Origin: Candidatus Gastranaerophilales bacterium
GTDB lineage: Bacteria > Cyanobacteriota > Vampirovibrionia > Gastranaerophilales > Gastranaerophilaceae
DNA: 64,000 nucleotides
Reading direction: 5' to 3'
Assembly: GCA_944325555.1 (NCBI GenBank)
Contig: CALVAN010000009.1
Coordinates: 1 to 64,000 of the forward strand
Shown in pieces: positions 1-58,952 of the stretch. The stretch's first letter is position 1. Every line of letters starts with the position of its first letter. Both the position numbers and the translations under genes were made by a program. The notes under the pieces are model-generated. The model had not been told where the DNA came from. It searched no databases and was given only the letters and a program-made list of their open reading frames with translations.

Positions 1-77
1 AATTACATAGCCCTCAAACAAACCTCGCTTGTAGTTGTTTGTGAAACTTTCTGTAATTCACTTCACAAAGGTCGGAT
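1..77 (+). repeat. 77-bp direct repeat, copy 1
   Basis: These 77 bases recur without mismatch at 58612-58688 on the same strand. The unit contains nested inverted repeats: AATTAC (1-6) with GTAATT (53-58), and CAAACAA with TTGTTTG around the string CCTCGCTTGTA, which also occurs near the left end of the dispersed structured element found five times in this window. It has no coding frame. In this copy the repeat ends directly at a TATAAT box (77-82); the second copy lacks that box. It may be truncated on the left by the window edge. Confidence 0.85.
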
Positions 78-88
78 ATAATGCATCT

Positions 89-250
89 AAGTTGTAAGCC
101 GTAGGGGGTTGCCTTCTTTTGCCGTTGAGCTGTGGCGAAACGTGCAAAATGGCTTCACGACTTCATTATGATATTGCAAATACACTCGTTCTTTTAATAG
201 TGAACTGGGAGAACCCCGCTTACAAGGTAAGCGTTTTGGCTTGCGTGTGC
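89..250 (+). ncRNA. candidate structured non-coding RNA (6S-like shape, unproven)
   Basis: A TATAAT box at 77-82 would start a transcript near 89. TTGTAAGC (92-99) and GGGGTT (105-110) can pair with AACCCC (212-217) and GCTTACAA (218-225), closing a domain of about 100 nt that has further short pairings (TGCAA 143-147 with TTGCA 174-178). GCTTAC (218-223) can alternatively pair with GTAAGC (227-232), so two structures exclude each other. No ORF runs through it, and the next gene appears to have its own promoter at 313. A long closing stem around an open centre resembles 6S RNA, but I see no diagnostic sequence motif. A leader or regulatory RNA is equally possible. Confidence 0.3.
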
Positions 251-312
251 GGGCAGCTCCTTTTGTTTTTTGATTTTTTCCCTTTGCTATTTTATTAGCT
301 ACAACTGTGTAA

Positions 313-318
313 TATAAT
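313..318 (+). promoter_or_regulatory. -10 box giving a probable leaderless mRNA for the binding-protein gene
   Basis: TATAAT at 313-318 lies only 8 nt before the ATG at 327, and no ribosome-binding sequence lies between. Transcription should begin at or 1-2 nt before the start codon. The -35 region is weak (T-rich). Confidence 0.5.
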
Positions 319-326
319 TATTTATT

Positions 327-1565
327 ATGAATAACTCTTTTAAACTCACGGCAGTAATCTCAATTGCCTGCATATTGCTTGTAAGCTTTGTTTACATACT
401 TACAAAACCTCAAAAAAACAGTAATAATGAGGTCGTTTTCTGGTCGCTTCAGATGGGGACTTTTGACGGATATATGAAACCCCTCATTGCGGAATTTGAA
501 AAACAGAATCCTGATGTGAAAATCAAATGGATTGATGTGCCGTATTCTGAAGGTGAAAAAAGAACACTCGCCTCTATTTTAAGCTCGACTCCGCCTGATC
601 TTGTTAACCTTACGCCGGATTTTTCGAGCGTACTGGCGCAAAAACAGGCGCTTGAATATATCGACTGCGCAAAACTCAAAGATTATAACAAACAGATTAC
701 ACAATCGCTTATGACGGACGGAAAGTGTTATGCCGTGCCTTTTTACGCTACCTCGTCTTTGACTTTTTATAATAAAGACCTGCTCAAAAAAGCAGGTATA
801 AAACAGGTGCCGAAAACTTATGACGAATTAAACCTGCTTGCTCCGTTGATAAAGCAAAAAACAGGTGCATTTGTCACTATGCCCACACTTACGGAAAATG
901 ACACGCTGCTTAAAATATTAAATAAATCGGGAATAAATACACCTCAAACTCTCACTTCCGACAGGTCTGTTAAAATCTTTGAGGGCTACAGAACACTGTA
1001 TCAAAAAGACTTAATTCCCCGTGAATCCATTACCCAGAACCATCAAGAGGCGCTTGAAAAATATATGTCGGGTCAGCTTGCGTTTATACAGTCGGGTGCA
1101 AACTTTTTGAATATAGTTAAAGAAAATGCCCCGCAGGTGTTTAATCATACCGATGTCGCCCCGCAGTTTACAGGTGATAACGGCAAGTATGACGTTTCCG
1201 TTATGAATTTGATTATCCCCGTGAGAGCAAAGCATAAGGACGGCGCTTTAAGGTTTGCGCTTTTTTTGACCAATAAACAAAACCAGATTGAACTGGCTAA
1301 ACTGACGACGATTCTGCCGGTTAACAACCTTGCACTAAAGGATGATTATTTTAATTCTTATACGGATGGCGATGTTATTGCAAAAGCAAGGGTGCTGAGT
1401 ACAAAACAGCTGGGTAATTTGCAGAAGAATATTCGTTTTGAAAACAACCATAAAGAAATTTTGACACTTTTAAATACAACGGTGCAGCAGATTTTGCTTG
1501 GTAATGACGATGTAAAAAAGATTTTGAAATCTGCGGCTAAGGATTGGAAAAGGCTGGAACAGTAA
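327..1565 (+). CDS. extracellular solute-binding protein, family 1 (ABC-type sugar binding)
   Basis: 412 residues. Residues about 7-26 form one hydrophobic segment with no convincing lipobox, so the protein is probably exported and held by an uncleaved N-terminal anchor. The rest has the layout of family 1 (maltose/glycerol-phosphate type) binding proteins: an early strand VVFWS, the EFEKQNPDVKIKW pattern, and 'YNKDLLKKAG...PKTYDEL' in the middle. Such proteins deliver sugars or oligosaccharides to an ABC importer, but no permease or ATPase gene lies next to it, so the ligand and partner are unknown. It is followed by the M14 peptidase gene with a one-base overlap (TAATG), which implies translational coupling. 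Family assignment is firm; substrate is not predictable. Confidence 0.85.
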   Translation: MNNSFKLTAVISIACILLVSFVYILTKPQKNSNNEVVFWSLQMGTFDGYMKPLIAEFEKQNPDVKIKWIDVPYSEGEKRTLASILSSTPPDLVNLTPDFSSVLAQKQALEYIDCAKLKDYNKQITQSLMTDGKCYAVPFYATSSLTFYNKDLLKKAGIKQVPKTYDELNLLAPLIKQKTGAFVTMPTLTENDTLLKILNKSGINTPQTLTSDRSVKIFEGYRTLYQKDLIPRESITQNHQEALEKYMSGQLAFIQSGANFLNIVKENAPQVFNHTDVAPQFTGDNGKYDVSVMNLIIPVRAKHKDGALRFALFLTNKQNQIELAKLTTILPVNNLALKDDYFNSYTDGDVIAKARVLSTKQLGNLQKNIRFENNHKEILTLLNTTVQQILLGNDDVKKILKSAAKDWKRLEQ

Positions 1566-2791: not shown

Positions 2792-2804
2792 GAATAGAGG
2801 TCAC

Positions 2805-3214
2805 GTCATCCTGAGCGAAGCGAAGGATCTGCTGCGGACTAAAATAATGTTTCCGACAAATCAACCCAATCTTTGTTAAAAGAATTGATTAAATCTATCT
2901 TAAAGCTGCGTTTTTTCCCTTTCAGATATTTTTCTCGTTCTATTGCAGAAACAATACTGTCGGTTTGTTCGAAATATACAAGTTTGTATAAATTGTATTT
3001 TTTGCTGAATCCGTCAACAACTTTGTTTTTGTGTTCAAAAATTCGTTTTGCGAGATTAGATGTGACTCCTATATAAAGAGTTGTATTTGTAGTGTTTGTT
3101 AAAATATAAACGAATGCAGAATGGTTTTTATACATACTGATAATAATAACATAAAGTTTTTGTGCGGATAAATGTATCGCCACATAGATTCTTCGGCTGG
3201 CGCCTCAGAATGAC
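2805..3214. mobile_element. palindromic element with a GIY-YIG gene in its loop
   Basis: Left arm GTCATCCTGAG...GGATCTGCTGCGGACT (2805-2840); right arm AGATTCTTCGG...CTCAGAATGAC (3186-3214). These are the arms of the neighbouring empty palindromes, but the roughly 30-nt loop is replaced by a complete GIY-YIG nuclease gene whose stop codon (2839-2841) overlaps the end of the left arm. This looks like an autonomous form of the repeat, with the empty copies as its non-autonomous derivatives. That relationship is inference. Confidence 0.55.
2839..3135 (-). CDS. GIY-YIG family nuclease (small COG2827-type)
   Basis: 98 residues from the ATG at 3135; the in-frame extension to 3183 runs into the flanking repeat. 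The GIY-YIG core is clear: FVYILTN ... TLYIGVTSNLAKRIFEH (a YIL/YIG variant with the Arg of the helix), KYNLYKLVYFE, and a Glu in AIEREKYLKGKKRSFKIDLI. The end, FNKDWVDLSETLF, matches the NxxWxDL tail of stand-alone GIY-YIG proteins. These are presumed DNA endonucleases, and the family's cellular role is poorly known. The gene fills the loop of a REP-like palindrome, which suggests that it acts on, or moves with, these repeats. Confidence 0.85.
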   Translation of the reverse strand: MYKNHSAFVYILTNTTNTTLYIGVTSNLAKRIFEHKNKVVDGFSKKYNLYKLVYFEQTDSIVSAIEREKYLKGKKRSFKIDLINSFNKDWVDLSETLF

Positions 3215-3280
3215 GAAGTGTAGACAATAGGCAGATTCTTCGGTCACTATGTTCCCTCAGAATGACGTATAAATAATCAC

Positions 3281-3371
3281 GTCATCCTGAGCGAAGCGAA
3301 GGATCTGCTGCGGACTGATGCCAATAGTTGTAACCGCAATATAGATTCTTCGACTAACGCCTCAGAATGAC
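3281..3371. repeat. REP-like palindrome, empty copy 2
   Basis: Starts GTCATCCTGAGCGAAGCG and ends CTCAGAATGAC, with the same loop as the copy at 2693-2791. A half copy ending in CTCAGAATGAC lies just before it at 3231-3266. The remaining bases up to 3603 hold the autotransporter promoter and leader and no ORF. Confidence 0.8.
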
Positions 3372-3512: not shown

Positions 3513-3596
3513 TATAATTCTTTTAATATTTGGATTTTTGTGTCCGGATTTATTAAGAATTTGAAAGAAATTACTTACTTAAATAATAAAAAGGAG
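3513..3596 (+). promoter_or_regulatory. promoter and RBS of the autotransporter gene
   Basis: TATAAT at 3513-3518 is the best -10 box upstream of the gene, with only a weak T-rich -35. AAGGAG at 3591-3596 sits 7 nt before the ATG at 3604, giving a leader of about 80 nt and a strong ribosome-binding site. Confidence 0.5.
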
Positions 3597-3603
3597 AGTG
3601 TGA

Positions 3604-6600
3604 ATGAGTAAAACCAAAACAAAACGCATGGTTGCTTCATTCCTGTTGCTGTGCGCAATGTCGGGGACAAAAGCTTTTGCAAACCCTGACCCCTGGAAAT
3701 TAGGCGATTCATTAATAGGGAAAGAAGATGTTTCAGGAAACATATTGTTTGATGAAATAACGGATTTTTCCGGATTAAGTACATCAAACTGGTACGGTGC
3801 TTTAGGGGTTCCGACACAAAAACATGATGATATAAATATAACACTTGATCATTCAACTATTGAAAATCCTCACTATACATTTAATAACAATGTGCAAATG
3901 GACGGCGGTTCATCAATATATTTATTTGCTAATCCTGACGGCAAGGAAATTGTTACCCCCGGTACTCCCGGTGATGAATTAAACGAGATTTCTAATGTTA
4001 CTTTAACAATTAACGGGACTTCCGAATTTAAAAATAATAATGCCAGCGGTGCACAAGGTCCGGGACTTGGCGGAGCTATATACACTGAAGGTGCAAATGT
4101 TATTTTTAACGGTAAATCTGACTTCACATCTAATACCGCTAAAGGATCCGGCGGTGCTATTTCTAATAACGGGGTAATGAATTTTAATAAAGGTGCCGGA
4201 TTCTATAATAATACTTCTAACGCCAGCGGTGGTGCAATACAGGTTGCAGCACAGGGTGAAGTGACTATCTCCGGCGGTGAAGTTATTTTTCAAAACAATA
4301 CTGCAACAAATAAAGGCGGTGCAATTTATAACGCAAACAAAGTCACTCTTGATTCCTCGGACGGTAATATTACATTTAGCGGTAATACTGTAAACGGAGT
4401 TGCAAACGATATTTATCTTGCCGATGCGACTGATTTGGGACATTTGCCTGCTCAAGAAGCTGCAAAACTTACATTGCAGGGCGACGCAAATACTATCACC
4501 TTTAACGGCTCTATAGAGGGCGAAGCAACAACTTCCATCTCCAACTCCGCAAACAAGCTCGTTTTAAACGGTGACAACAGCGGTTTTCTTGGTACGTATA
4601 AACAAACAGCAGGTGCCACAACCACGGTAGGCGCAGGCGGAAAATTCTTCGGCGGGAACAGTACCATTTCATCAAATAGTTCCGATACTCCGAGCAACTT
4701 GATTTTGAATGCAAAAGACGCACTTGTAGACGGTTCAACAATTAAACTTGATGGAACAATGTACCAGAACTACAGTGATGTTAACGTTTACATTAACGAT
4801 GATAATAAAATCAACGGAAACTTCTCGGGCTTAGGTTATATTTATAACGGCGACCAACGTTCTTCAGCGTCAACCGTTACACTTACGGGCGTCAATTCAG
4901 GTTTTAAAGGTACGTATTTCCAAAACAGCGGTGATGGCAAACTGGTCGTTGCAGAAGGGGCAACCTCTTTTGACGGCACAAACATAATTACCGGCTCGGG
5001 GTTGGAGTTACAAAACGGCTCGGGGTTGGAGTTACAAAACGGCTCAACTTTATTAGGTCAGACTGAAATCACAGATGCTGCCTTCACATCAACGGGTGCA
5101 ACTATTGCCGGTGCAGTTGATATGTTTGGAACCACCAATGGCGATATGACTGGCACAATAATTGACAACACGTTCAGAGTTGTTGGCGGTACTTTAAACC
5201 TCAAAGACGGCAACGAAATCAGCACTGCTGACGGTGCGAAAGGCAGCCTTGTAGTCAACGGCGGTGTTGTTAATATTAATCAGGATTTAACTCTCGGCGG
5301 TACGGGTAACGGCGTTATCACAAACGATGCGGCTCCCGAAAACCCTGCAACACCTCAAATCAACCTCGGTGTACACACTTTAACCGTTAATGGCGACACT
5401 TCCGGTTATAACAAGAATTTTACCGCTAACGGCGGCACCGTGGATATCAACGACGGCGGCAAGTTCTTCAGCGGTACAAATACCTTTACTAATAGCTCTG
5501 CCGTTACTGTAGACAACGGTGAGCTTTCGGGAACAAACATTTTTAATGCTTCCACCTTAACGGCCAACGGTGCAACTATCTCCGGCAGTATCGAAGCTGA
5601 AACGGGAGCTGAAGTTACTATTGCAAGCAGCAATTTAGATAATGCAACTTTTGCTTTTGACGGCGGCACAATAAATATCAATCAGGATTATACGATAAAT
5701 GACGGTGATATAACCGGTACTACCGGTACTCTGGCTCAAACAGGTGATTATAATCTTACCGTAAATACCGATGTTTCAAGTTTTGTCGGCACGTTGGATA
5801 AAAACGGCGGAACGGCAACCGTCGACGGTCAAAAATTCTTTGGCGGTCAAAACAATATTTACGGCGGTGCAGAGGTCAGCCTCTCCAATGGTGCCGAACT
5901 TGTTGCGGACAGTACAACAACTTTAGGCAACGATAGTTCGTCCGCTACTCTTAATATTGACGGCTCAACTGTTAACGGCGCAGTTAATGCATACAACAAA
6001 TCAGATATTAATCTGACAGACAATGCTGTTGTTAACGAAAATATAACACTGTACAATGATTCGCAGGTTGTTATTAACGACAACACAACATCAAATTCAA
6101 CAGTTCAATTAAACGGACAAATAATCTCCGATGCCGGTTCAACAACTTCAAATGTTACATTAAAAGGTCAAAATCTTGATATAAAAGCCGACCAATCAGG
6201 TTTTAAAGGTACTTATACACAGGAAGCCGGCACAACTAACGTTGAAGGCGGTTCTTTATTTGGCGTAGCAAACAACATCAAAAACGGTGTTGTGAATATG
6301 AAAGATGATTCTTCACTTGCAAAAGGTTCTACTTTGCAGATGAGCAGCGGCACAACCATAAATATTGAAAACAAAGGTGCCGATCATAATGCGGCTACAA
6401 ACAATATTCCCGCAACAACAGGTAATGAAACCGTTTTATCTGGTGCAATATCTTCTGAAGTTGATAAAGCCGGTGCAATCAATGTAACCGGTGAAAATAC
6501 TTATCTTGTAGTTGACGCTGATATGAGTGGTTACACAGGCACGTTTACTCAAGACAATGGCGCAACTACTGAAGTAACCGAAAACGGCGTATTCTTTGCC

Positions 6601-9600
6601 GGAACAAACGTACTTAATGACGGACACTTTATTTTCCGTGATAACGCACAGCTCGGCGGTAACGTTACGGTAGCAAGCAAAGATGTTCACCTTGCCTTTG
6701 GCGACGGTTCTCAAGGCTATAAAGTAGAAGACGGAAACCACGTTTATTATTACAATAGCGACGGAAGCAGAGGCGAACACTCCTTTATTATGAACTATGT
6801 AACAATCACTGACTCATTAGACGGAGGTCAGGGAGATTACAAAGTTATTGATACGGATTTCGGCTCAAACGGCGGTTTTGCCAATACTGCTGATTATGAT
6901 ATCAAACAGCAGAATGACGGCTCAAAAACAACAATTTCCTTCCGTGACGGTTCGGTTGCTCAAGACGGAGCACAGCTAAATCTTGCCGATGTAAATACAG
7001 AAATTAAGATAAATGCCAATTATATGGAAGAACACGCAACAAGCTCTTCTAAAGACGGCGTATTCGGTGCTGATATCTCAGGTATAGGTACAGTTAACGT
7101 CTACAATACAAACAGCAAAGACAAAGCGCTTACTTTCATATCAGATAACAGCGGCTTTAGCGGTGCATATAAACAGACAGGCGGCAGCATAAGATTTGAA
7201 GGTCAAAACGGTGCTTCACACTTCTTTGACGGTGTAAATGAACTTACAAATCAAAGCTGCGTTGCGTTTGGTGCAAATTCTGTAATCCATGGTACAAACT
7301 ATGTTGATTCGACTTCAACCATTGTCATGGAGAACGGCTCTTCAATAGATAAAAACGACGGAGACAAGACAAGAATTATTCTGCAAGGCGGTACGTTGAG
7401 TATAGAAAATACTGATAAAGACAATGCGCTTGACCTTAATATTCCCGTAGAAAATAATGAACTCGGCGGGAATGTTAACAAAACAGCCGCAGGTGCTCTG
7501 ACTATCAGTGCTGACCAGCATGAATACACCGGCAACTACACACAAACAGGCGAAGGCAAGGTCACTGTTAACGCACACAAAAGCTTCTTTGGCGGTACAA
7601 ACAATATCAACAACGGTATTGTTGACTTAACAGCAGAAGGCGCTAAAGTTGCAGGTCAAAACACAATATCTTCAACCAGTGACACAGTCGGCGGTAAAAT
7701 GCAAATCGGTGATAAAACAGATACAACAACCTATCTTAAGAATCCGATTATAGTAAACACTGTTGAGTCAGATGCCGATGCCGGTCTTGAACTTGTTACA
7801 AAAGACGGCAACAGTCAAAACCTTGAAGTTGCATTTGCGATTGCATCGGGTGCAGACAATACAGGGCGTGTTACACACAGCGGAAACGGTACGTTGAACC
7901 TTAACAACGCGGGTCAAAATGACCTGTTTGAAAACTTTAAAGGTACATTTGCCCAGACTTCAACAGGTGTAACCAACGTATTTGGCAATTCGTTTGAAAA
8001 GAACGATATTCAGGCAGGTACGCTGAATATGAAAAACGGCTCAAAACTTGCTGACGGAACAACAAACCTCGGCGCAAACGGTACGTTAAATATCGGTACT
8101 CTTGCAAACGATACAACATTTATTGAAGAAGGCGAAACACGCTACGACTTTGATGCAAATTCAACCGTAACAATCGCTTCCAGCATTTCCGGCACCGGTA
8201 AAGTCAATATCTCTGAAGGTCAAACAACGATTACAGGTGACAGCAATAACTCCGGCTTTAGAGGAAATTACACCCAGACAGGCGATTCACAGGTTACGGC
8301 GCAAAGCGGTTCAACCTTCTTTGGCGGAGTGAACAACCTTATCCAAAAAGGTATATTGTTCTTTAAACAGGGTGCAAAACTTGCCGATAACAGTCAGGTT
8401 AAGCTCGACGGTAATACTTATGACGCAAATGATCCTACTGCGCCAATAGACAAAGCAATACTTGACCTCGACGACAGAACAAATGCCGTATTCAACGGCA
8501 ACAAGCTTACTTTAAGCAAAGAATCCGCAACAGATGCAAGCTTTGTATTCACCGACGGTATTTTGCAAAATGCTGTCTTGCACGATACGCAAAATATTGC
8601 CGGCGATGTAGCTGCAGGTTCTGAGCCTGTTATTACTCTCGGCAATGACTCCGGCTTCGGCAATGATGCAAAGGTAACAATTGCATATGGTGCGGAAACC
8701 ATTCTTGCTTCAGGTTCCGTTGCTGAAAACGGCAGCATGGTTAAAGTGGATACAGACAGTGTATTAGGTCTTGTTTCAGACAATCTGGATTATTACACCA
8801 AGACAACAGGTGCCGGCTCTATCGGTGTAACAAAAGACCCGAGAGAAGAAAACGCACCTAATATTAATATTTATAACGATCAGTCACGTTTTACGGGCGA
8901 CTATACGCAAGATGCCGGTCGTGTAACTGTTAAAAACGGTGCAACCTTCTTTGGCGGTACCAACGAGGTAACAGGTACACAGGTAACGGATTCTACTACT
9001 GGTGAGATTATAAAATCCACCTCAGGTGATCTCTATCTGGAAAAAGGCTCGCTTATCGGTTCAGATATTAAAATCACAAACTTTGACAAAACAGCTAATG
9101 CAGGTGTTTCTACACCTCATGGACGTGTATTTATTGAAGATAAAATATATGACAAAGACGGTAATGAGTTAACAGACATCGATAAATTGATGGATGGTGA
9201 CTTGTACTACAACACTTCTGCTGACGGCAGTGCAATAACACAGCATAATATCAAAATTGAAAATGCAGGTTTGATTCTTTCAAACGGCACAATCTTTGAC
9301 GGTTCTGACGGTCCTACAGTCTTTGAAAACAAAGGCAACGGCGGTGTTGTTGACATAGGCTTCTCTAACGGAACAGGTGTTGACGGTGATATTGTTCTTA
9401 AGAGAGATACAATGCTTTCTTACGGCGACAATGCTTATATCAAAGATGATTCTACTTTAGAAATGGAAGATACCGCCATTTTGAACTTTATCAACGACAG
9501 CACAACAATAAACTATAATCCTGAAATTGTCGGCGGCGGTTCAATCTATAAGGAAGGTTTGGGTACAACAAATATTTCTTCCGCAATCGATATGACAGGT

Positions 9601-11265
9601 GAGGTCAAAGTCAGCGAAGGTACTTTGAACTTTACAAACAAAGACAAAGTTATCTTTAATAAAGGTGATGATTTAAATTTAAGACAAACCGGTAACTTGA
9701 CTGTAGGTTCAGGCTCTTCTAATGCAAGTATAAGCATTGTTGCAAAAGATACTGTATTTGGCGGAGATGTTACTTCAAATGCTCAGGACGGAACACAATC
9801 AACGGTTGCCTTGAACGGTAAAAATACCACTATCGGCGGCAACTTGTCCAACACTAACACAAATTTGTCGATACTCGGTAATTCTTCAATCGGCGGCGAT
9901 TGGACAATAAATGGTAATTCCGGTTTGAATCTTGTCGGAAATTACTCAAATACAATTGATGTGGCAGGCGATCTTATCTTAGGCGATAACCTTAAGGACG
10001 GAAAACTTCCTGTTGCTTTCGATTATGACCCTCACAGGGGAACAATGGATACAATCCTCGTCGACAGCTTCCAAAACGACAGTAATTCTCCGTTGTTGAT
10101 TACCGGTATCAACTTTGTTACTTCACCTGTTGACAGAAACTTTGATCTTTCTGCCGACAGATTGATTCAACAACGCAATCCCGAAGATACACCATATTAC
10201 GATGCGACCAGCTTCTATGCTAATACGGCAATGGGTCGTTATTTCTTAAGCAACGGAGCAGGCGGTGCTGACTTTACCGGTACGCTGGTTCACCTCAACC
10301 CGCAACAGTACAGAGGTCAGGTTGCAACAATCGCTTCTTGGCAAAACCAATTGTTGATTAACAACTTGTTATTCGACCACATGGATATTGTTACAAGACA
10401 GCTGATGGACGACGAAAAAACAGCAAACAAATATGCGGCATCTATTCCGCAGTTTGCACCTTATCAGTATGACTTAAAAGGAGGCAGCCTCTGGTACAAA
10501 GCTTACGGTAACTTTGAAACTCTTTCCATGACGAAAGGTTTGAGCGTAGGCAACAACGCATACGGTGCATTAATCGGTGCCGACTTCCCTCTTATAAAAC
10601 TTAAACACGGTTGGAACGTTGTGCCAACAGCTTACATCGGTTACAACGGTGCTCACCAACACTTTAACGGTGTAAGTATGTACCAGAACGGTGCTCAACT
10701 CGGTGTAATGGGTACCGCTTACAAAGGTGATTTCCTTACATCATTATTGGCATATGGCGGCGGTTACGGTAACGATATGTCTATGAGCGGACCTTACGGC
10801 TCCGGCAGCGACAATACAGGCAACTGGTTTGCAGGTGTTGCATCAAAAACCGCTTACAACTTCCATCTGCCTGCAGACTTCATATTCCAACCTACCGTTA
10901 TGGCTGCATATAACGCCTTCGGCTCTCAAAACTGGGGTTCCGACTTTGGCGTAATGAGTATGAGCTCCGGTATGCTCAACGGTCTTAACGTTGCTCCAGG
11001 ATTTAACTTAATCTGGCAGAAAAAATCCTTTAACATCTACTTAACAGCTCAAATGGTTTACAACATTATGGGCGGTGTAGACGGCAAAGCAGGCAATGTT
11101 GACCTCGGCTATGTGAGAATGCGCCATTCATACTTTGAATACGGTTTAGGTGTTTCCAAAAACTTCAAAGATCGTTTCGGCGGCTTCTTACAGTTCGTAA
11201 TCAGAAACGGCGGCAGAACAGGTATCGGCTTCTCCGGCGGATTACAATTCAAAGTCGGCAAGTAG
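3604..11265 (+). CDS. giant autotransporter / Pmp-like surface protein
   Basis: 2553 residues. A signal peptide ends in KAFA (about residue 26). Four GGAI motifs near residues 155, 182, 207 and 237, with FxNN patterns, match the polymorphic-outer-membrane-protein repeat. Then roughly 20 degenerate repeats follow the pattern SGFxGTYxQ...TTVexGxxFFGGxN, predicting a long parallel beta-helix. From about residue 2290 (GGSLWYKAYGNFE) to the end is an autotransporter beta-barrel rich in alternating aromatics. The last residues are GGLQFKVGK, so the usual terminal Phe/Trp is absent. It should be secreted by the type V route and displayed on the surface as an adhesin-like stalk. Monocistronic with its own terminator. 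A perfect 24-bp tandem duplication lies at 4993-5040. Confidence 0.92.
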   Translation: MSKTKTKRMVASFLLLCAMSGTKAFANPDPWKLGDSLIGKEDVSGNILFDEITDFSGLSTSNWYGALGVPTQKHDDINITLDHSTIENPHYTFNNNVQMDGGSSIYLFANPDGKEIVTPGTPGDELNEISNVTLTINGTSEFKNNNASGAQGPGLGGAIYTEGANVIFNGKSDFTSNTAKGSGGAISNNGVMNFNKGAGFYNNTSNASGGAIQVAAQGEVTISGGEVIFQNNTATNKGGAIYNANKVTLDSSDGNITFSGNTVNGVANDIYLADATDLGHLPAQEAAKLTLQGDANTITFNGSIEGEATTSISNSANKLVLNGDNSGFLGTYKQTAGATTTVGAGGKFFGGNSTISSNSSDTPSNLILNAKDALVDGSTIKLDGTMYQNYSDVNVYINDDNKINGNFSGLGYIYNGDQRSSASTVTLTGVNSGFKGTYFQNSGDGKLVVAEGATSFDGTNIITGSGLELQNGSGLELQNGSTLLGQTEITDAAFTSTGATIAGAVDMFGTTNGDMTGTIIDNTFRVVGGTLNLKDGNEISTADGAKGSLVVNGGVVNINQDLTLGGTGNGVITNDAAPENPATPQINLGVHTLTVNGDTSGYNKNFTANGGTVDINDGGKFFSGTNTFTNSSAVTVDNGELSGTNIFNASTLTANGATISGSIEAETGAEVTIASSNLDNATFAFDGGTININQDYTINDGDITGTTGTLAQTGDYNLTVNTDVSSFVGTLDKNGGTATVDGQKFFGGQNNIYGGAEVSLSNGAELVADSTTTLGNDSSSATLNIDGSTVNGAVNAYNKSDINLTDNAVVNENITLYNDSQVVINDNTTSNSTVQLNGQIISDAGSTTSNVTLKGQNLDIKADQSGFKGTYTQEAGTTNVEGGSLFGVANNIKNGVVNMKDDSSLAKGSTLQMSSGTTINIENKGADHNAATNNIPATTGNETVLSGAISSEVDKAGAINVTGENTYLVVDADMSGYTGTFTQDNGATTEVTENGVFFAGTNVLNDGHFIFRDNAQLGGNVTVASKDVHLAFGDGSQGYKVEDGNHVYYYNSDGSRGEHSFIMNYVTITDSLDGGQGDYKVIDTDFGSNGGFANTADYDIKQQNDGSKTTISFRDGSVAQDGAQLNLADVNTEIKINANYMEEHATSSSKDGVFGADISGIGTVNVYNTNSKDKALTFISDNSGFSGAYKQTGGSIRFEGQNGASHFFDGVNELTNQSCVAFGANSVIHGTNYVDSTSTIVMENGSSIDKNDGDKTRIILQGGTLSIENTDKDNALDLNIPVENNELGGNVNKTAAGALTISADQHEYTGNYTQTGEGKVTVNAHKSFFGGTNNINNGIVDLTAEGAKVAGQNTISSTSDTVGGKMQIGDKTDTTTYLKNPIIVNTVESDADAGLELVTKDGNSQNLEVAFAIASGADNTGRVTHSGNGTLNLNNAGQNDLFENFKGTFAQTSTGVTNVFGNSFEKNDIQAGTLNMKNGSKLADGTTNLGANGTLNIGTLANDTTFIEEGETRYDFDANSTVTIASSISGTGKVNISEGQTTITGDSNNSGFRGNYTQTGDSQVTAQSGSTFFGGVNNLIQKGILFFKQGAKLADNSQVKLDGNTYDANDPTAPIDKAILDLDDRTNAVFNGNKLTLSKESATDASFVFTDGILQNAVLHDTQNIAGDVAAGSEPVITLGNDSGFGNDAKVTIAYGAETILASGSVAENGSMVKVDTDSVLGLVSDNLDYYTKTTGAGSIGVTKDPREENAPNINIYNDQSRFTGDYTQDAGRVTVKNGATFFGGTNEVTGTQVTDSTTGEIIKSTSGDLYLEKGSLIGSDIKITNFDKTANAGVSTPHGRVFIEDKIYDKDGNELTDIDKLMDGDLYYNTSADGSAITQHNIKIENAGLILSNGTIFDGSDGPTVFENKGNGGVVDIGFSNGTGVDGDIVLKRDTMLSYGDNAYIKDDSTLEMEDTAILNFINDSTTINYNPEIVGGGSIYKEGLGTTNISSAIDMTGEVKVSEGTLNFTNKDKVIFNKGDDLNLRQTGNLTVGSGSSNASISIVAKDTVFGGDVTSNAQDGTQSTVALNGKNTTIGGNLSNTNTNLSILGNSSIGGDWTINGNSGLNLVGNYSNTIDVAGDLILGDNLKDGKLPVAFDYDPHRGTMDTILVDSFQNDSNSPLLITGINFVTSPVDRNFDLSADRLIQQRNPEDTPYYDATSFYANTAMGRYFLSNGAGGADFTGTLVHLNPQQYRGQVATIASWQNQLLINNLLFDHMDIVTRQLMDDEKTANKYAASIPQFAPYQYDLKGGSLWYKAYGNFETLSMTKGLSVGNNAYGALIGADFPLIKLKHGWNVVPTAYIGYNGAHQHFNGVSMYQNGAQLGVMGTAYKGDFLTSLLAYGGGYGNDMSMSGPYGSGSDNTGNWFAGVASKTAYNFHLPADFIFQPTVMAAYNAFGSQNWGSDFGVMSMSSGMLNGLNVAPGFNLIWQKKSFNIYLTAQMVYNIMGGVDGKAGNVDLGYVRMRHSYFEYGLGVSKNFKDRFGGFLQFVIRNGGRTGIGFSGGLQFKVGK
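4993..5040 (+). repeat. 24-bp perfect tandem duplication inside the autotransporter gene
   Basis: Two identical 24-base units (4993-5016, 5017-5040) encode two adjacent copies of GSGLELQN. The unit keeps the reading frame, so gain or loss by slippage would change protein length by 8 residues without disrupting it. Confidence 0.9.
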
Positions 11266-11294: not shown

Positions 11295-11320
11295 GCCTCT
11301 CAAACACGAGAGGCGTTTTT
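11295..11320 (+). terminator. rho-independent terminator of the autotransporter gene
   Basis: GCCTCT and AGAGGC pair around an 8-nt loop, followed by GTTTTTTA. It lies about 30 nt after the stop codon. Confidence 0.85.
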
Positions 11321-11328
11321 TATATATT

Positions 11329-33440: not shown

Positions 33441-33512
33441 ATTTACTCCCTGTTTAATACTATTTATCTGTAGTAAAATTATATAATATAACGTTGAATT
33501 TAATAAACAAAT

Positions 33513-33632
33513 TTTCTAGGGTTCCGCACAAATTTCGGTTTGCGGTCAGGTCCGAGAGAAAATTCACAAATTTTTTATTTGTGTACACGGAGGGATAAAA
33601 GCCCGGGAGGTAGAAAAGACTCTCGGGCTAAA
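33513..33632 (+). promoter_or_regulatory. guanidine-I riboswitch (ykkC subtype 1)
   Basis: Core conserved strings of the ykkC aptamer occur in order: CTAGGGTTCCG, GGTCAGGTCCGAGAG, ACACGGAGGGATAAAAGCCC and GGGAGG. A stem of 10 pairs between AGCCCGGGAG and CTCTCGGGCT (33600-33629) overlaps the aptamer's 3' end and is the probable switching helix. A TATAAT (33482-33487) would start the RNA near 33494. It precedes sugE, the classic regulon member. Guanidinium binding should raise exporter expression. Confidence 0.93.
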
Positions 33633-58336: not shown

Positions 58337-58952
58337 GTAGGTTGGGCTTTCAGCCCAACACAAAAAGCAGTCATTGCGAGGGAGTGAAACGACCGAAGCA
58401 ATCCAGACATACGGCAAGGATTTTTGTTTTATTGCCTTCGTGCTTAAATATATTTGCTTTATGTTCCGCCCATTCTTTGATGCAAAGAACGGGTGGAGCC
58501 CAAGAAACTCCCGACCTGCTGTTCCGTTCATACAGAAAGTAATACAAACCTGTGCTCGGCAACTCGGGCTATATAAATTGCTCTCCTTTGATGTATTAAA
58601 GTATTTGTTATAATTACATAGCCCTCAAACAAACCTCGCTTGTAGTTGTTTGTGAAACTTTCTGTAATTCACTTCACAAAGGTCGGATTTCTATTAAGTT
58701 TTTAGTCGCATAGGTTGGGCTTTCAGCCCAACACCTGATGTCATTCTGAAGCGTCAAGTTGTTCGTTATGCGAAGATTTTGTGTGTTCAGAATCTTACCG
58801 GTGTTCTTGGTTGTCGTTCATAATTGGTAAGATCCTCAGCTCGCTTTGCATCTCGGGATGACAATTAATTTTATTGTTTTTGTTACTGGCAGATTCTTCG
58901 CTTCGCTCAGAATGACGTGTTTTTTTATCGTAGCTTGTGCTTTCAGTCCAAC
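58337..58952. repeat. intergenic repeat cluster
   Basis: The 875-bp gap between rbgA and the first plsC gene contains no gene that I can support. It holds the palindrome TTGGGCTTTCAGCCCAA twice (58337-58360, 58711-58734) and a degraded third (58929-58952), CATTGCGAGGGAGTGAAACG (58371 onward), REP arms GTCATTCTGAAGCG and CTCAGAATGAC (58740-58916), and the 77-bp repeat. Part is an inverted copy of 36173-36345. Confidence 0.75.
58612..58688 (+). repeat. 77-bp direct repeat, copy 2
   Basis: Identical to 1-77 over all 77 bases. The identity stops where copy 1 has its TATAAT box: here GGATTTCTATT follows instead of GGATATAATGC. So the repeat is a discrete unit and does not carry the promoter. Confidence 0.88.

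What the first reader, a model, noticed from the sequence alone, without database searches (positions are those of the whole stretch)
3604..11265. 2553-residue Pmp-like autotransporter lacking the usual terminal aromatic residue
Combines chlamydial-type GGAI repeats near the N-terminus, about 20 GTYxQ...FFGGxN beta-helix repeats and an autotransporter barrel. The last residue is Lys after LQFKVG, whereas most autotransporter barrels end in Phe or Trp, the signal for barrel assembly. Either the assembly machinery here reads a different signal, or the aromatic one is internal. The single largest gene of the window and probably the main surface protein.
Basis: partly seen in the sequence, partly recalled or inferred. 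Interest (0 to 1): 0.5.

Follow-up and report, generated by a model that had tools for sequence, protein, structure and literature searches.

The report
Giant surface protein, internal barrel signal
A gut cyanobacterial relative makes a giant, probably self-exporting surface protein whose membrane-insertion tag ends in an ordinary oily residue two positions before the protein's end instead of the usual terminal aromatic residue, and its relatives have swapped between the two forms several times.

Summary
The ORF is real: 2553 aa, Ca. Gastranaerophilales (by record titles), with four GGAI motifs, ten (not about 20) GxYxQ units, a predicted beta-solenoid passenger and a C-terminal barrel. AlphaFold2 gives a confident helix plus 12-strand barrel that superposes on NalP, EspP and AIDA-I (Z 30-32); their aligned ends fall on V2551. 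G2552-K2553 is a two-residue overhang. The last strand, SGGLQFKV, fits the published bacterial beta-signal, so the signal is present, ends aliphatic and lies two residues inside. It is not a truncation: 19 of 19 same-genus homologues fetched end the same way. Of 158 distinct family barrel ends, the strand ends in L/I/V in 146, F in 11, P in 1; 10 chains end in an aromatic. Autotransporters from other families of the phylum: 24 of 24 aromatic. F and aliphatic ends swap about six times on a tree, even within one genus; BamA still ends aromatic in 20 of 22. So the terminal aromatic looks dispensable and no new machinery is needed. The unexpected part: TpsB of the genus lost it too, gaining a basic tail ending in Leu (26 of 26).

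The parts
3592..3596 (+). AGGAG, probable ribosome-binding site
   Evidence: read; inference
3604..11265 (+). whole gene, 2553 aa plus TAG stop
3604..3681 (+). probable Sec signal peptide (basic start, hydrophobic core, AFA before NPDP)
   Evidence: by eye; no signal-peptide predictor was run
4015..4389 (+). Pmp-like stretch: 4 GGAI and interleaved FxxN motifs (aa 138-262)
   Evidence: NCBIfam TIGR01376 19 bits over cut-off 15; Pfam Chlam_PMP 20.1 bits, just under cut-off 20.6
4585..8973 (+). passenger part with ten GxYxQ units (aa 328 to 1763), about 105-210 aa apart with one gap of 293; predicted beta-solenoid where modelled
   Evidence: AlphaFold2 of aa 1180-1790 only, pLDDT 85.5, pTM 0.81
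10300..10443 (+). helix before the barrel (aa 2233-2280), at the autotransporter alpha-linker position; its last part (from model residue 60) is under pLDDT 50
   Evidence: superposition
10483..11256 (+). 12-stranded beta-barrel (first strand from aa 2294, last strand aa 2538-2551)
11233..11256 (+). beta-signal S2544-G-G-L-Q-F-K-V2551 (polar-x-G-x-x-aromatic-x-hydrophobic)
   Evidence: consensus from PMC10945584 and PMC3045335, passages
11257..11262 (+). two-residue overhang G2552-K2553, presumably periplasmic
   Evidence: (strand ends at model residue 337 of 339)
11295..11322 (+). terminator-like hairpin with T run
   Evidence: by eye

Best explanation
It is a type Va (classical) autotransporter of Ca. 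Gastranaerophilales with a partly Pmp-like, beta-solenoid passenger. Shown by sequence or model: a 12-strand C-terminal barrel with a helix before it; a last strand that satisfies the BAM beta-signal; V2551 at the canonical terminal-aromatic place, the aromatic two residues earlier (F2549), and GK beyond the strand; the same kind of ending in all 19 homologues of the subgroup fetched from the genus. Inferred: after Sec export the ordinary BamA of this cell pairs its first strand with this last strand, the barrel inserts, the passenger is carried out and folds on the surface, and the GK end stays in the periplasm. A large hydrophobic residue at the end of the last strand is enough; an aromatic, and an exactly C-terminal position, are not required. 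Phe and Leu/Ile/Val have exchanged places at the strand end, and short or long tails have been added or lost, repeatedly in this order of bacteria (direction not established).
For: Barrel model pLDDT 85, pTM 0.82. Foldseek ranks 1-19 in PDB are all autotransporter barrels, best E 4.9e-14. VIA-align: NalP Z 32.3 (model 20..337 to 786..1084), EspP Z 31.4 (16..337 to 999..1300), AIDA-I Z 30.4 (..337 to 1286), BrkA Z 24.7 (..337 to 1010): model residue 337 = V2551. 158 distinct closed C-termini from 182 loci (180 with a match): strand end L69 I39 V38 F11 P1; residue two before it W106 F23 Y9 of 158; 144 of 158 match polar-x-G-x-x-[aromatic/hydrophobic]-x-[aromatic/hydrophobic] (two rows re-anchored by eye). 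Same-genus homologues of the subgroup: 19 of 19 end V, L, I or (one) P, then GK, GKE, GKD or GKDKK; with the window they match a starred set of 20 rows on the tree. Comparison: PF03797 autotransporters of other families of the phylum, 24 of 24 aromatic. F/aliphatic changes on the tree: 6, at least 5 forced by starred branches; nearest F/L pair 0.12 changes per column apart, same genus g26. BamA ends 20 of 22 aromatic. Barrel 94-97% but passenger 62-80% identical among five homologues.
Against: The window protein itself gets no PF03797 hit; of 42 barrels scanned 1 did. Paralogue C4 is over cut-off in the six-frame search (57.9 bits) but not found by hmmscan. So the sequence link to PF03797 is weak and the fold carries the assignment. 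No profile match to any PDB sequence at E up to 1. Not every superposition ends at residue 337: Hbp pairs 339 with 1379. Eleven of 158 rows keep a strand-final Phe, so an advantage of Phe in part of the family is not excluded. No BamD-like protein over cut-off, so the machine's accessory part may differ. No expression, insertion or localisation data.
Confidence: 0.82

Rival explanations
1. The gene is a truncated or frameshifted exception that has lost a normal aromatic end.
For: The last residue is Lys, unlike most known barrels.
Against: 19 of 19 homologues of the subgroup fetched from the genus share the GK-type ending; the last strand is complete in the model; past TAG only two codons precede TGA.
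Confidence: 0.02
2. The assembly or quality-control machinery of this lineage reads something new: the terminal aromatic rule has been relaxed for substrates other than BamA, and the freed C-termini have become periplasmic tails with a function of their own (docking, turnover).
For: TpsB of the same genus lost the terminal aromatic and has a basic tail ending in Leu in 26 of 26; all 41 TpsB ends examined are aromatic (9) or Leu (32), against Leu in 9.9% of 242 other frames; autotransporter tails of 20 aa or more hold a [KR]..[VIL][IL]K motif in 12 of 21 (shuffle mean 0.83, maximum 4 in 2000 shuffles; 13 of 416 other frames in their last 30 residues) and 19 of 31 in the wider set; one autotransporter tail ends KKKENL like TpsB KKKKENL; no BamD over cut-off.
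Against: Ten of 158 autotransporter chains still end in Phe and one genome can hold both kinds; the window protein has only two extra residues; the motif was chosen after seeing the tails and the rows are related; an exact DNA pattern for RKVIK gave no more matches (8) than its backward control (11) over 7 genomes.
Confidence: 0.2
3. C-terminal processing removes the overhang so that a conventional end is exposed.
For: Nothing direct; an aromatic lies four residues before the last residue.
Against: 36 of 158 rows have no tail at all, and 26 of these still end in Leu or Ile, so there is nothing to remove.
Confidence: 0.03

Closest known systems
Type Va autotransporters (NalP, EspP, AIDA-I, BrkA)
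   Same: helix plus 12-strand barrel of the same size and register; beta-solenoid passenger; beta-signal in the last strand
   Different: strand ends in Val, not an aromatic, and two residues follow; about 2200 aa before the barrel; sequence too far for PF03797 in the window protein
Chlamydial polymorphic membrane proteins (Pmp)
   Same: GGAI/FxxN repeats near the N-terminus; NCBIfam POMP repeat over cut-off; paralogue C33 has Chlam_PMP at 74.4 bits
   Different: the Pfam scan showed no Pmp middle domain; only about 125 of 2553 aa are Pmp-like
   Same: same phylum; last strands such as GGFRWQF compare position by position with AGFRWAI or GGLQFKV
   Different: 24 of 24 distinct ends read are F19 W4 Y1
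Mitochondrial beta-signal (PoxGxxHyxHy)
   Same: the final hydrophobic need not be aromatic; motif near the end of the last strand (PMC3045335, passages)
   Different: resemblance of the rule only
Autotransporters with an alpha-tail after the beta-motif (12 of 1523, Celik 2012)
   Same: residues follow the beta-motif (PMC3419190 section 8)
   Different: rare there; here 122 of 158 rows have some tail, and the strand end is mostly aliphatic

Membership tests
type Va autotransporter | C-terminal 12-stranded barrel with a preceding helix | tested here: met
type Va autotransporter | beta-signal in the last strand ending in a bulky hydrophobic residue | tested here: met
   SGGLQFKV; consensus; Celik: in 1038 sequences with the motif in the last strand its final residue is always bulky hydrophobic
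type Va autotransporter | last residue of the chain aromatic (usual, not defining: 473 of 1523 have only an internal motif) | tested here: not met
   ends V-G-K
type Va autotransporter | match to Pfam PF03797 | tested here: inconclusive
   window protein no hit; paralogue C4 over cut-off in six-frame search, no hit by hmmscan
type Va autotransporter | beta-helical passenger | tested here: met
   AlphaFold2 of aa 1180-1790, pLDDT 85.5; PDB matches weak, best antigen 43, E 0.0019, TM 0.21; the rest of the passenger was not modelled
type Va autotransporter | N-terminal signal peptide | not tested
   seen by eye; no predictor run
type Va autotransporter | passenger on the cell surface | not testable with these tools
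   needs an experiment
chlamydial Pmp | repeated GGA(I/L/V) and FxxN tetrapeptides | tested here: met
   Pfam Chlam_PMP just under its cut-off
chlamydial Pmp | Pmp middle domain (a Pfam family by recall) | tested here: not met
   Pfam scan at E up to 0.1 shows only the repeat model; so it is Pmp-like, not filed as a Pmp
chlamydial Pmp | barrel of the chlamydial clade | not tested
   no chlamydial sequences were fetched

The most novel reading that the evidence does not exclude
In Gastranaerophilales the C-terminal aromatic rule for outer-membrane barrels has been relaxed: the beta-signal moved inside, and the freed C-termini of two different barrel classes (autotransporters and TpsB) became basic periplasmic tails with shared short endings (KVIKSL-like, KENL-like, terminal Leu) that something in the periplasm recognises, while BamA mostly keeps its aromatic end.
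Probability: 0.25. Interest if true: 0.65.

Novelty: new variant of a known kind. Interest (0 to 1): 0.42.

Why it matters
The terminal Phe/Trp is commonly taken as the signal for barrel assembly. This bacterial order offers a natural series in one barrel family (ITFKF, FSFKL, FQYKL-GK, LQFKV-GK), with F and L swapped between close relatives, so whether the aromatic or its terminal position matters can be tested with ready-made natural variants. It also warns that an outer-membrane protein predictor that demands a terminal aromatic would miss most of the family sampled here (148 of 158 ends), and that TpsB of the same genus carries an unexplained conserved tail.

Tried and rejected
Truncation: rejected (shared ending). 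The first census (105 distinct ends, 105 of 105 aliphatic, none chain-final aromatic) was biased to near relatives; wider sampling brought F-ending rows, and 'never aromatic' was dropped. A machinery-wide change is weakened by BamA and by F and L ends within one genus. OprB and LptD by PF04453 gave no match in this genome and could not serve as comparison barrels. BamD model TIGR03302: best 37.1 bits against cut-off 81.4.

Tail motif in other proteins: an exact DNA pattern for RKVIK plus a later HT base pair in 7 genomes gave 8 matches in 4 genomes, against 11 for the backward control, so no excess overall. Three of the 8 are autotransporter C-termini (G040, G041, G042); of the other five, one (L172) stands 7 codons from a stop but in a 9-residue frame, and four lie in frames of 17-69 residues; I take them as chance. 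A tail-peptide search in 3 genomes found only its own source. Profile search of PDB sequences: nothing. The one TPP_enzyme_N match among 42 barrels is taken as noise. The C28 row of the DNA identity table was out of register by one codon and is not used.

Literature: 'autotransporter' with 'Gastranaerophilales' 0 papers; Melainabacteria, outer membrane and autotransporter 1, a Baltic Sea review (listing only). Other searches: (listings). Passages looked up without a point that decides the question: PMC3582582, PMC6659671, PMC9289746 (the term 'cyanobacteri' does not occur), PMC2811131.

Rows dropped: one search dropped 3 segments (short hits in L041 and L100, open L305) and found none in L300 and L304. 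L019-L021 (C24, C38, C53) are too short for the profile and were read directly (all GLRWKVGKE). Two of 43 lower-scoring Omp85 places (G028:C107, G031:C145) were not fetched for the TpsB table. Of the 30 loci, 24 lie outside Gastranaerophilales and were all read; weaker matches without a locus there were not read. One search left out 4 of 158 rows as too short.

Full report
What is there. The ORF at 3604-11265 (+) is intact and 2553 aa long. The window is contig C9 of a 2.32 Mb, 60-contig genome, 99.95% complete. The five nearest records have barrels 94-97% identical; four are titled Ca. Gastranaerophilales, one 'uncultured bacterium'. The N-terminus looks like a signal peptide (by eye). Four GGAI motifs with FxxN motifs lie at aa 138-262. 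NCBIfam's POMP repeat scores over its cut-off, Pfam's Chlam_PMP just under. A model of aa 1180-1790 from six sequences is a confident beta-solenoid (pLDDT 85.5, pTM 0.81); its PDB matches are weak, the best being antigen 43 (E 0.0019, TM 0.21).

The barrel. A model of the last 339 residues, built from 42 sequences, has pLDDT 85 and pTM 0.82, a long helix and twelve strands, the last at model residues 324-337. Foldseek's first 19 PDB matches are autotransporter barrels. VIA-align gives Z 32.3 to NalP, 31.4 to EspP, 31.2 to EstA and 30.4 to AIDA-I; model residue 337 pairs with NalP 1084, EspP 1300, EstA 622, AIDA-I 1286 and BrkA 1010. One chain, Hbp, pairs at 339 instead. That these numbers are the proteins' last residues, and aromatic, is recalled, not shown by a call. 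Model residue 337 is V2551; G2552 and K2553 hang beyond.

The signal. The published bacterial beta-signal is polar-x-G-x-x-[aromatic/hydrophobic]-x-[aromatic/hydrophobic] (PMC10945584, passages). S2544-G-G-L-Q-F-K-V2551 fits it. Celik et al. found the motif in the last strand of 1038 of 1523 autotransporters, its final residue always bulky hydrophobic, often F or W; only internal in 473; and followed by a short tail in 12 (PMC3419190, section 8). Cyanobacterial outer-membrane proteins are reported to end in FxF (PMC2222254, passage); here the pattern is mostly W/F-x-aliphatic.

Census. A first set of 119 loci gave 105 distinct ends, all aliphatic at the strand end and none chain-final aromatic. 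Because that set was chosen by similarity, I widened it. In 182 loci (180 with a match) there are 158 distinct closed ends: L69 I39 V38 F11 P1 at the strand end, after two mis-anchored rows (L295, L296) were corrected by eye; 10 chains end in an aromatic, all Phe. The 19 homologues of the window gene's subgroup, fetched from 19 of the 22 other genomes of the genus, all end like it, with GK, GKE, GKD or GKDKK. Other genera of the family show the same strand as ITFKF, VTFKF, FSFKL, FNFKL, ITFKL and FQYKL-GK. In genus g26, G252 and G180 have F where G222, G320, G124 and G262 have L. On a tree of 154 barrels built without the last 14 residues, F and aliphatic change 6 times (at least 5 forced) and tail class 14 times (quick method, with warnings about long branches, and no direction implied).

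Other barrels of these genomes. BamA: 22 distinct ends from 30 loci, Y18 F2 N1 L1; the exceptions are L135 (another family) and L139 (same family, genus g3). In the window's own genome BamA ends FTFGVGEFY, and the TpsB homologue (ShlB 88.4 bits) ends KNRETL. TpsB ends, 41 loci, all distinct: genus g1 26 of 26 Leu, with a basic last stretch (net charge +2 to +6 over 16 residues); f2 4 of 4 aromatic; f3 3 of 4; f4 2 of 3; f7 0 of 2; f1 g2 and g3 0 of 2; every non-aromatic one ends in Leu. Background of 242 other frames: 22 aromatic, Leu 9.9%. So TpsB has also lost the aromatic in this genus, while BamA has kept it.

Tails. Of 158 rows, 36 have no residue after the strand, 81 have 1-5, 10 have 6-19 and 31 have 20 or more; 30 of those 31 are net positive. 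In one search's set 12 of 21 long tails hold a [KR]..[VIL][IL]K motif (shuffle mean 0.83, maximum 4 in 2000 shuffles), against 13 of 416 other frames in their last 30 residues; in the wider set 19 of 31. The motif was defined after seeing the tails and the rows are related, so this is a lead. An exact codon pattern in seven genomes gave no excess over its backward control; leaving out frames of under 70 residues, it stood at a C-terminus only in the three autotransporters.

Mechanism. Shown: fold, place of the last strand, fit to the signal, conservation of the ending. Inferred: export by Sec, pairing of the last strand with BamA's first strand, passenger translocation, GK in the periplasm. 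No BamD-like protein passed the cut-off, so recognition may rest on BamA alone. The best reading is a conventional type Va autotransporter with a relaxed, slightly internal beta-signal.

Assessment. It needs no new machinery. What would surprise a specialist is the scale of the relaxation, its repeated exchanges, and the parallel change in TpsB with an invariant terminal Leu in the genus.

Noticed in passing
window 2804-2830, 3280-3306, 58891-58917 (-): Exact direct copies of a 27-base repeat flank a single-domain GIY-YIG nuclease ORF (2839-3183 -, PF01541 54.9 bits); a third copy has 2 mismatches; none expected by chance. The same repeat seems to be read within the frame of the C10 autotransporter (by eye). 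Possibly a small mobile repeat with its nuclease.
   Followed up: partly
L023:1171-3270 (own genome C7) and L173-L212: TpsB proteins of the genus end in a lysine-rich tail with an invariant terminal Leu (26 of 26), where most of the order-level relatives read in f2-f4 end in F or Y (9 of 11).
   Followed up: partly
G000 contigs C24, C28, C38, C53 (L018-L021): Four contigs break inside autotransporter barrels; three (C24, C38, C53) are 95-98% identical to C4 over the last 110 bases, so further passengers of this family probably lie in assembly gaps.
   Followed up: partly
L025-L029 against window aa 901-2214: Passenger 62-80% identical while the barrel is 94-97% identical: a fast-changing, probably surface-exposed part.
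   Followed up: partly
L245, L256: Autotransporters with C-terminal tails of 109 and 197 residues after the barrel, rich in Lys, Asn and Thr, with VIK-like motifs.
   Followed up: no
window 33505-33611 (+): Guanidine-I riboswitch, 91.8 bits.
   Followed up: no
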